A stretch of 64,000 nucleotides of DNA, taken from IMG/VR virus record IMGVR_UViG_3300033233_000019, positions 1 through 64,000 of that record, one strand, 5' to 3'. The position numbers were made by a program, and so were the translations under genes. Numbering within the stretch: the first letter of the stretch is position 1; each line of letters opens with the position of its first letter. Source of the DNA: a virus. Under the pieces are notes generated by a model, which worked only from the letters and a program-made list of their open reading frames with translations, ran no database searches and was not told the DNA's origin. Below are positions 22,549 through 25,150 of this stretch, in pieces.

Positions 22549-22760
22549 TACAGCTTTTCCCAATCGATAGGTTCATTAAATCCGGCTTCAGTACGAAGAT
22601 CATTCAGCTTCTTCGCTATCTGAGGCTCTCCAATTGCCAGAGCCAGACCAATCACATCGATGAACGACTTGTTCCAAAGCTTTCTCGCTTCGACCATGCC
22701 ATATGCATCGGTGTCAACTGGTGTTGGATGATTGTCGATTCCGTCCTTGTTAACTTCCAC
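22548..22760 (-). CDS. small hypothetical protein, 70 aa
   Basis: GTG start at 22760 with GAGGAGGA upstream, overlapping the end of the reductase gene by 11 nt. NKSFIDVIGLALAIGEPQIA, then KKLNDLRTEAGFNEPIDWEK; helical, no recognised family. Position suggests a reductase accessory protein, unproven. Confidence 0.6.
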   Translation of the reverse strand: MEVNKDGIDNHPTPVDTDAYGMVEARKLWNKSFIDVIGLALAIGEPQIAKKLNDLRTEAGFNEPIDWEKL

Positions 22761-24387
22761 AACTTCCTCCTCGCAAGTCGCAAACGTCCGCTTGCTCGTA
22801 AATTATTTCGTCCTTGTGCTTCAGCGCCGTTTGATACGACACCGGGACTAATGGTTGACCGCTTCGCGCACCATCCGGGTAAAACGTAATGCCGCGCAAT
22901 TGAGGCAAGTACTTCATCAGCATCTTGCCCATCGGCTTAACCTTGTCTTCGTTGTTCCACTCGCTGCCCCAAGGCGGCAAGTTGATTGTGCTGCTAATCG
23001 CATGATCCACGTAACGCTGCATGAATGCTTGAAAAGCAACGCGGCGCTCCGGGGTTTTCGACAACTCGTAAGCGTCTTCAATCTTGTCTGGATCGATACC
23101 TTTCTTGATCAACCTCTCAGCAGTTGGGTCAACGACGTACTGAAGGGCGCGTTTCTTGCCATCGGTGAAATAAAGTCTGCGATACGCAACACAGAGTATA
23201 GGCTCAATACAAGTAGTAGTTTCTCCCACAATTCCGATAGTTCCATTCGGAGCGAGGGCGCGATTCTTGACTGGTGTCGATAGGTTCCAAAGCTTCGCGT
23301 ATTTTTTGGACGCATCGTCGCTCTCCTGTTCATAAAGCATCAACCAAGCTTTCAACTCTTCGCACTCACCATAGACGTGTCCGCGTGTGAGCAACCACTC
23401 TGCGACTCCCATCAGACCTAATCCAAGGCGGCGGTTCTTATCTCTAACTTCACGAATCTTCTCTGTCGGAACATCGCTATAGACTGTCCCGGCCAACAGA
23501 AACGCGATTGCTGCTTGGACTGCTTGTTGGAACTCAAGCAGTGAGGCAAATCTCACCATGTTGAGCGATCCAAGATTGCAGATATCGCTGTCTTCGTGGC
23601 TCGTGATTTCGGTACACGCATTTCGTAAGTTTTCCCCTTCGTTCTTGAAAGCGTCGATGCTGAAGCCGGGGTCACCCGTGCTCATCGCTTGCTTCAGTGT
23701 CTTGTAAAACCTTTTGCGTGTGTGGGTGCCGTCAGCTTCAAACTTTCTGAAAAACTCCGTGTCCAAAATCGTGCTGATGTTCGTCATGTCGAGCGGCGCA
23801 GGAAAATCATAATCCTTCGCCTTCAACGCCACAACTTCCGGCGACCAATTCTTGATCGTAGTGAACGTATCAATGTCAGGATGATTCCAGTGCAGCCCTG
23901 CCCAAATCGCGCCTCTACGATTACCACCAGAGCGAATGAATCGCCCGGACTCATTGACCATTTGCATCAATGCAAGCGGCCCACTGGCGACACCGCCTGT
24001 CTTCTTGATTGGCTCACCATATCCGCGAAGATCGGAATACACCACACCTTCGCCAGCACCAGTCATAAGTGACATGCTGGATTTGTACATCAAGCCAGAC
24101 CAACCCTCACGACTGTCTTCGGCGCGGAACAACGCACAATTCTGTGTTTGGTGAAATGGTTTTCCGGTTGCTGCCAAATAACGACCACCGGGAAGAAATT
24201 TTCTGTCACGAATCAGACCTTCAACAAACGCGATCAACTCTTTGTCTTTGGTTACAGAACTGAGGACAGTGTGCGCGACTCTATGTGCCAACTCTGCCCA
24301 TGTTTCTTTCGTACCGTCGCCCTTCACTTGCAGATATCGGTTCTTGGCAACTTCTCGTGCGAGACTACCCCACTTGTCCAGACTCAT
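22750..24387 (-). CDS. ribonucleotide reductase, class II (B12-dependent) type
   Basis: 545 aa from the ATG at 24387 (GGAGAG upstream). FHQTQNCALF carries the first redox Cys; SSMSLMTGAGEGVVYSDLRG and RSGGNRRGA are NrdJ-type; ACTEITSHEDSDICNLGSLN holds the N-x-C-x-E active site; GTIGIVGETTTCIEPI follows. It is shorter than usual NrdJ proteins and ends CDLRGGSCGS, lacking the long C-terminal zinc tail. Supplies deoxynucleotides for phage replication. Needs adenosylcobalamin from the host if the class call is right. Confidence 0.85.
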   Translation of the reverse strand: MSLDKWGSLAREVAKNRYLQVKGDGTKETWAELAHRVAHTVLSSVTKDKELIAFVEGLIRDRKFLPGGRYLAATGKPFHQTQNCALFRAEDSREGWSGLMYKSSMSLMTGAGEGVVYSDLRGYGEPIKKTGGVASGPLALMQMVNESGRFIRSGGNRRGAIWAGLHWNHPDIDTFTTIKNWSPEVVALKAKDYDFPAPLDMTNISTILDTEFFRKFEADGTHTRKRFYKTLKQAMSTGDPGFSIDAFKNEGENLRNACTEITSHEDSDICNLGSLNMVRFASLLEFQQAVQAAIAFLLAGTVYSDVPTEKIREVRDKNRRLGLGLMGVAEWLLTRGHVYGECEELKAWLMLYEQESDDASKKYAKLWNLSTPVKNRALAPNGTIGIVGETTTCIEPILCVAYRRLYFTDGKKRALQYVVDPTAERLIKKGIDPDKIEDAYELSKTPERRVAFQAFMQRYVDHAISSTINLPPWGSEWNNEDKVKPMGKMLMKYLPQLRGITFYPDGARSGQPLVPVSYQTALKHKDEIIYEQADVCDLRGGSCGS

Positions 24388-24559: not shown

Positions 24560-24597
24560 AAAAATTAACGGGCGCGTTCTGTTGCAAGGTCGCGCCC
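24560..24597 (-). terminator. rho-independent-type terminator of the tmRNA region
   Basis: On the minus strand GGGCGCG pairs with CGCGCCC across an 14-nt loop, followed by GTTAATTTTT. Lies about 220 nt past the tRNA-like 5' half of the tmRNA. Confidence 0.7.
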
Positions 24598-24689
24598 TAA
24601 CCCCTATCCGCGTTACGCCGAAGCGTAAGCGAAAGATGGTTCCACCGAAAGATGGGGAACAGTGATGGACTTGCGCCCACCCTGCCAAC

Positions 24690-25145
24690 CTTCAATCATG
24701 GAACTTGCGATAAACGGTTTAGCATTTATCCGTTGCATGTCGTTTTAAGGTGCGCCATACTACCACCGCATTGTCCATGATCCCTGAAATGTATCCGTCG
24801 AAACCTTGACACGCCCATTATAAACAGTTGAACACGTTTTTACGGCCCACGTTTGAACGTCAATGTTTGTCTTCGTTCAACTGCTTATGGTGGACGTGAC
24901 GAGAGTCGAACTCGTGTCCGCATACACCAACAATCACTTCATACCATGCTTAAACTTATAAAATTTAGGGCGGGGTGGTTATGAACCGTTCCCCGTTATC
25001 CCCAAATGGCAAGTTGCGACCTTGCCGTGCTTATTGCCCACACCAACGGAGCGCCGTCTACAGTCCTGAATCTTGTACAGGCGTAACGTCCCGGCTAGAC
25101 TGCTACCGTATGTTGGAATATGCGATGCGCTTCACTGTGAGCAAA
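24690..25145 (-). ncRNA. ssrA: tmRNA, circularly permuted (two-piece) gene order
   Basis: The tRNA-like 3' half comes first on the minus strand: T-arm ACGAG-TTCGACT-CTCGT, then CACGTCC-A-CCA ending at 24888. After a 71-nt intervening segment (24817-24887) comes the 5' half: GGGCGTG (24816-24810), TCAA, GGTTTCGACGG (24805-24795), the hallmark tmRNA D-loop. GGGCGTG pairs with CACGTCC over seven positions (one G-U), and CAGTTGAAC/GTTCAACTG closes the intervening loop. ATACAT and TTTCA after the D-loop match GTGTAT and TGAAG before the T-arm (helix 2). Candidate tag frames end at TAG 25095 (Ala resume at 25130 or 25142, ending TVAV). A GATAAA/TTTATC pseudoknot-like stem and a terminator follow. 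Outer ends approximate. Confidence 0.8.
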
Positions 25146-25150
25146 CTTAA

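What the first reader, a model, noticed from the sequence alone, without database searches (positions are those of the whole stretch)
24690..25145. Circularly permuted tmRNA gene in a phage
The CCA-ending 3' half (T-arm, CACGTCC-A-CCA at 24888) is transcribed before the 5' half (GGGCGTG, GGTTTCGACGG). The two acceptor strands pair at all seven positions (one G-U), and the 71-nt segment between them closes with a 9-bp stem CAGTTGAAC/GTTCAACTG. This is the two-piece arrangement known from alpha-proteobacteria, some cyanobacteria and beta-proteobacteria. A phage copy could rescue ribosomes or add its own degradation tag; the candidate tag ends TVAV rather than the usual AA.
Basis: partly seen in the sequence, partly recalled or inferred. 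Interest (0 to 1): 0.88.

Follow-up and report, generated by a model that had tools for sequence, protein, structure and literature searches.

The report
Permuted tmRNA gene in a phage
A virus that probably infects soil Acidobacteriota carries its own two-piece ribosome-rescue RNA (tmRNA), with its gene halves in swapped order and an unusually long 36-residue tag, although its likely hosts make the ordinary one-piece RNA with a 9-residue tag.

Summary
The permuted tmRNA is real. It lies on the minus strand: acceptor piece ~24950-24888, 71-nt intervening hairpin 24887-24817, coding piece 24816 to ~24570. Rfam tmRNA_permuted scores 56 bits (cut-off 47). That score alone would not settle it, because tRNA plus standard-tmRNA tandems reach 41-72 bits in Acidobacteriota. 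Comparison settles it: ten distinct tmRNAs of related phages pair at every acceptor and T-stem position, 8 of 12 pairs have double-sided changes, and the alanine-identity G3-U70 pair never varies. The tag is in the usual place, 24723-24616 then UAA: AKPFIASSMIEGWQGGRKSITVPHLSVEPSFAYASA (36 aa). Relatives encode 11-33 aa; nine of the ten tags end in Ala. The closest cultured relatives, Tunturi_3 and Tunturi_4, infect Tunturiibacter (Acidobacteriota) and carry the gene unannotated. No permuted tmRNA was found in 297 Acidobacteriota genomes; eight examined have standard tmRNAs with 9-aa tags. Phage permuted tmRNAs are already published, so this is a variant: a new phage clade, a host phylum with only the standard form, and long tags. 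No smpB was found, so host SmpB is assumed.

The parts
24888..24950 (-). acceptor piece (transcribed first): GCAUG-UA motif, P2 3' strand (24937-24918), T-arm (24919-24899), acceptor 3' strand CACGUCC 24898-24892, A 24891, CCA 24890-24888; the 5' end is estimated
   Evidence: RF04321 hit 24948-24696; pairing and covariation
24817..24887 (-). 71-nt intervening segment removed in processing; hairpin closed by a 14-15 bp stem that starts just after CCA and ends 4 nt before the coding piece
   Evidence: fold z -3.9; 0 of 20,000 shuffles; same geometry in L010, L162, L163, L164, L167 and other phages
24795..24816 (-). coding piece start: acceptor 5' strand GGGCGUG with G3-U70, D-like loop GGUUUCGACGG
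24724..24796 (-). P2 5' strand and pseudoknot-1 region leading to the resume site GAUAAAU|GCU
   Evidence: cofold, P2 coevolution test, resume spacing 85-96 nt in all relatives
24613..24723 (-). tag reading frame, 36 codons + UAA: AKPFIASSMIEGWQGGRKSITVPHLSVEPSFAYASA
   Evidence: position and frame match relatives
24560..24612 (-). 3' end of the coding piece: hairpin/pseudoknot GGGCGCG-ACCUUGCAACAGAA-CGCGCCC then U-rich tract; GCAACAGAA shared with alphaproteobacterial and other phage permuted tmRNAs
   Evidence: weak alpha_tmRNA match; motif in 23 of 24 alpha references and 7 of 10 phage-clade tmRNAs
   Evidence: about 150 nt upstream of the acceptor piece; relatives have no room for it
22750..24387 (-). 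downstream gene: ribonucleotide reductase large subunit; synteny tmRNA -> RNR shared with L005 (58% identity)

Best explanation
This is a phage-borne, circularly permuted tmRNA gene. Shown: sequence, order, pairing, covariation, tag frame, distribution. Inferred: one transcript is cut by host RNase P before GGGCGUG and by 3'-end enzymes after CCA, releasing the intervening hairpin and leaving two pieces held by the acceptor stem and P2. Host AlaRS charges it through G3-U70, host SmpB and EF-Tu deliver it to stalled ribosomes, and it adds a phage-specific 36-residue tag ending YASA before the UAA stop. The likely benefit is recycling ribosomes stalled on broken mRNAs during infection, under phage control.
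For: RF04321 56 bits, E 3e-8. Of 12 acceptor and T-stem pairs across 10 distinct phage tmRNAs, 100% of cells pair, 8 have double-sided changes, 0 of 500 shuffles equal this; U-G at 3-70 in all 10. Summed over the ten, P2 strands fit their own partners better than swapped ones (7 of 100,000 permutations as good). The gene is found in 12 of 14 related records longer than 50 kb. The tag starts 85-96 nt after GGG in all; nine of ten tags end in Ala. No tRNA body upstream and no standard 3' half downstream, so it is not the tandem artefact.
Against: No transcript or two-piece evidence. No consensus promoter found. The window's tag is longer than most and ends SA, not AA. The window's score lies within the range of tandem false positives, so the case rests on pairing and relatives. 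No phage smpB, so function depends on an assumed host SmpB.
Confidence: 0.85

Rival explanations
1. A decoy: the RNA competes for SmpB or EF-Tu and inhibits host trans-translation, like the tRNA-like-domain-only tmRNA of phage DS6A; the tag frame is incidental.
For: A DS6A-like molecule inhibits tmRNA (PMC4131195, PMC11915505). Long, sequence-variable tags.
Against: Tag frame, resume position and C-terminal alanine are kept in relatives whose RNAs are otherwise very divergent.
Confidence: 0.1
2. A relic or pseudogene picked up by recombination at a host ssrA, no longer functional.
For: Low covariance score; ssrA is a frequent integration site (PMC11915505).
Against: Hosts have the standard form, not the permuted one. 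Compensatory changes and retention in 12 of 14 larger relatives show selection.
Confidence: 0.04
3. A standard tmRNA lying next to a tRNA, misread as permuted.
For: This arrangement explains all 12 Acidobacteriota chromosomal RF04321 hits.
Against: In the window there is no tRNA body upstream and no T-arm/CCA half downstream, and the two acceptor halves pair 7 of 7 with each other.
Confidence: 0.01

Closest known systems
Two-piece ssrA of Methylophilales phage Melnitz and related marine phages (PMC9004378)
   Same: phage-borne circularly permuted tmRNA, tag in the downstream piece
   Different: Melnitz's is alpha-type and linked to a glutamine riboswitch, in a marine myophage; here the phage clade is soil/acidobacterial, hosts carry only standard tmRNA, and most tags are 26-36 aa
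Alphaproteobacterial permuted tmRNA (Rfam RF01849; Caulobacter two-piece tmRNA)
   Same: piece order, intervening segment between the acceptor halves, G3-U70, GCAACAGAA element near the coding piece 3' end
   Different: alpha references here have ANDN/ANNN-type tags of 10-13 aa and mostly a GGAUCGAC-type D region; the tree separates them from the phage set
Permuted tmRNAs of gammaproteobacterial phages SM1, DLP_6, Moby, Rb1, XacN1 (found here)
   Same: permuted, intervening hairpin ending 4-6 nt before GGG, mostly GGUUUCGAC-type D region; four of the five lie nearest the clade in the tree (moderate support)
   Different: 12-14 aa tags ending in AA; scores 103-137 bits
Unannotated tmRNAs of Tunturiibacter phages Tunturi_3 and Tunturi_4
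   Same: same phage lineage by DNA polymerase (39%, 35%); for Tunturi_3 also by terminase (50%); permuted tmRNA
   Different: tags VNKI...MLAA (29 aa) and ANTV...YAVAA (33 aa); Tunturi_4 has a GGQ release-factor-domain gene just upstream

Membership tests
permuted tmRNA (RF04321) | covariance-model score over the gathering cut-off | tested here: met
   56 vs 47 bits
permuted tmRNA (RF04321) | 3' acceptor/CCA half precedes the 5' half and the two halves pair with each other | tested here: met
   7 of 7 pairs, compensatory changes
permuted tmRNA (RF04321) | no normal-order partner half elsewhere in the genome | tested here: met
   whole 98.9-kb record searched, single match
tmRNA | G3-U70 alanine identity pair | tested here: met
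   U-G in 10 of 10
tmRNA | P2 helix joining the two pieces | tested here: met
   cofold and permutation test
tmRNA | in-frame tag with stop codon after the PK1/resume site | tested here: met
   36 codons + UAA, spacing as in relatives
tmRNA | tag C-terminus of the usual hydrophobic-Ala-Ala kind | tested here: inconclusive
   window ends YASA; 6 of 10 clade tags end AA, 9 of 10 end A
two-piece tmRNA | mature RNA in two pieces; alanine charging; tagging | not testable with these tools
   needs RNA and protein experiments
alpha_tmRNA (RF01849) | full-length match over its cut-off | tested here: not met
   18.9 vs 50 bits, 3' end only
beta_tmRNA (RF01850) | full-length match over its cut-off | tested here: not met
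   38.8 vs 84 bits, tRNA-like domain only

The most novel reading that the evidence does not exclude
Permuted tmRNA is a mobile phage trait that has become its own lineage, carried into hosts of several phyla regardless of the host's gene form. The acidobacterial-phage branch evolved long (26-36 aa) tags that change the fate of tagged proteins (different protease or adaptor, or slower degradation) instead of copying the host's 9-aa tag.
Probability: 0.25. Interest if true: 0.7.

Novelty: new variant of a known kind. Interest (0 to 1): 0.48.

Why it matters
Here a whole phage clade keeps the permuted form of tmRNA while a bacterium of the same genus as its cultured hosts, and the host phylum at large, carries only the standard form. 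That makes two questions testable with isolated phage-host pairs (Tunturi_3 and Tunturi_4 on Tunturiibacter): whether a phage tmRNA replaces or out-competes the host's, and what an unusually long, phage-specific tag does. The phage genes were missed by the original annotation.

Tried and rejected
blastn of the locus against phage records: no match. Three tight DNA patterns in viral contigs gave one hit, L002, a beta-like permuted tmRNA in an otherwise unconnected contig. Short alternative frame MLNRLSQVP* at the resume site: rejected, out of frame with the position used by relatives. Acidobacterial permuted tmRNA as donor: 12 of 297 genomes rang, all overlapping standard tmRNAs that follow a tRNA or a second tmRNA. 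Typing as alpha or beta: neither full model passes for the window; different clade members lean to different models. The tRNA-like-domain tree separates the alpha references (support 0.996) but does not resolve the donor, and no betaproteobacterial or cyanobacterial genomes were sampled. Extra rescue factor in the window phage: no RF-1 domain and no SmpB. The 200 nt upstream of the acceptor piece folds only modestly (z -2.2) and holds no tRNA. No consensus promoter.

Full report
Observation. On the minus strand the window reads T-arm, CACGUCC-A-CCA (to 24888), 71 nt, GGGCGUG (24816-24810), GGUUUCGACGG. Rfam tmRNA_permuted (RF04321) matches 24948-24696 with 56 bits against a cut-off of 47, E 3e-8; beta_tmRNA matches the tRNA-like domain only (38.8 bits, below its cut-off) and alpha_tmRNA matches weakly at the 3' end (18.9 bits). 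ARAGORN does not call it. There is no other tmRNA match in the 98.9-kb virus record.

Is the score enough? No. In 297 Acidobacteriota genomes 12 gave RF04321 hits of 41-72 bits. Every one overlaps a full standard tmRNA (149-198 bits); where the flanks were read, a tRNA gene or a second tmRNA, or other unrelated sequence with a T-arm-like stretch, precedes it. In the window this reading fails: there is no tRNA body upstream, no T-arm/CCA half downstream, and the two halves pair with each other.

Relatives. The DNA polymerase and terminase are closest to Tunturiibacter phage Tunturi_3 (39% and 50%); the polymerase also matches Tunturi_4 (35%). A viral-contig search found L005 (52%) and 26 further records. 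Permuted tmRNA over the cut-off is present in Tunturi_3, Tunturi_4, L005's record and ten of the 26 further records; among records longer than 50 kb, 12 of 14 have it, counting the window's. It is unannotated in the two isolates, and the paper on them does not mention tmRNA (PMC11924767). After removing identical copies there are ten distinct sequences.

Structure. Across the ten, all 120 acceptor and T-stem cells pair; 8 of 12 pairs have changes on both sides (0 of 500 shuffles, and sliding the partner destroys it). The U-G pair at 3-70, the alanine identity element by established tmRNA/tRNA-Ala knowledge, never varies. Summed over the ten, P2 strands anneal better with their own partners than with swapped ones (7 of 100,000 permutations as good; the window's own pair ranks first both ways). 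In six of ten, the intervening segment is a hairpin whose stem begins 0-1 nt after CCA and ends 4-5 nt before GGG, with unrelated sequences; the other four have short segments (25-38 nt) without such a stem.

Tag. The resume codon lies 85-96 nt after GGG in all ten. The window's frame is AKPFIASSMIEGWQGGRKSITVPHLSVEPSFAYASA-UAA (24723-24613). Others: ANTVTSTIRNVASVRTGFFRSAEPITNRYAVAA, VNKIDRSVVAVVPASRKVRVAQFATMLAA, ATKSVGSRIASFVKGLFSFDGFAIPVLA, AKTNKSRKAYGMFFGGNTVGQLSVAA, VTESVSHSRVRFSVRKSVVAAQLLAA, GKSVYDKMVAALSVETQEVASELVMA, ATTEKPKAFAATAGR, ANEETLAMEAAA, AKPLAMAAAAA. Seven of ten exceed 25 aa; nine end in Ala. ARAGORN independently reads five of these frames. For L165 it proposes a different, downstream frame; the frame given here was read by hand from the conserved position, as were those of the window, L011, L014 and L163. 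Standard tmRNAs of eight acidobacterial genomes encode 9-aa tags such as AEPQFALAA, alphaproteobacterial permuted references mostly 10-13 aa, and other permuted phage tmRNAs 12-14 aa. The most frequent tag length in the tmRNA database is 10 aa (PMC11915505).

Host form. Eight of eight acidobacterial genomes examined, including Tunturiibacter lichenicola M8UP30 (titled Edaphobacter lichenicola; same genus as the hosts of Tunturi_3 and Tunturi_4), have full-length standard tmRNA. The window phage's own host is not known; Acidobacteriota is inferred from its relatives. The mismatch is probably not unique: phages of Pseudomonas, Stenotrophomonas and Xanthomonas also carry permuted tmRNAs, and those genera are known for standard tmRNA (general knowledge, not tested here).

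Origin. The GCAACAGAA element near the coding piece end is shared with alphaproteobacterial permuted tmRNAs (23 of 24) and 7 of 10 clade members (one as GUAACAGAA), which argues for descent from existing permuted genes rather than a fresh permutation. The tRNA-like-domain tree groups eight of the ten (support 0.94) near gammaproteobacterial-phage copies and away from alphaproteobacteria (0.996); L010 and L167 fall outside this group, and beta- and cyanobacterial genomes were not sampled. The donor stays open.

Context. Genes on both sides run the same way; a ribonucleotide reductase gene follows in the window and in L005 (58% identity). No smpB occurs in any of the phages. Tunturi_4 has a GGQ-bearing RF-1-domain gene directly upstream of its tmRNA, and Tunturi_3 has one elsewhere in its genome.

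Verdict. A genuine permuted tmRNA gene, new variant of a known kind; mechanism by analogy with bacterial two-piece tmRNA, with processing, charging and tagging inferred.

Noticed in passing
Acidobacteriota genomes, e.g. loci L182-L193: RF04321 gives hits of 41-72 bits on standard tmRNAs, typically when a tRNA lies just upstream; users of this model should check that the two acceptor halves pair with each other.
   Followed up: yes
L184 (G183:C13 201907-202671): Two standard tmRNAs in tandem in an acidobacterial genome, the upstream one with a degenerate 3' end: the kind of intermediate expected if permutation arises by tandem duplication and loss of outer halves.
   Followed up: partly
L241-L245: Unannotated permuted tmRNAs (103-137 bits, 12-14 aa tags) in Xanthomonas phages Rb1 and XacN1, Stenotrophomonas phages DLP_6 and Moby and Pseudomonas phage SM1.
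   Followed up: partly
L240 (Sinorhizobium phage Phosso): Permuted tmRNA match spanning about 600 nt, implying an intervening segment of several hundred nt.
   Followed up: no
L010:1915-2262 (-), Tunturi_4: RF-1-domain protein with GGQ motif (possible ArfB-like rescue hydrolase) directly upstream of the tmRNA; another in Tunturi_3; none in the window phage.
   Followed up: partly
L006:39751-39825 (-), Tunturi_3: tRNA with a predicted four-base anticodon (gaaa) about 350 bp downstream of the tmRNA.
   Followed up: no
L246 (Ruegeria phage V10) 43-476: GOLLD RNA next to a permuted tmRNA.
   Followed up: no
window 24955-25150: About 200 nt between the upstream small ORF and the tmRNA, fairly structured (z -2.2), with no tRNA and no identified function.
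   Followed up: partly
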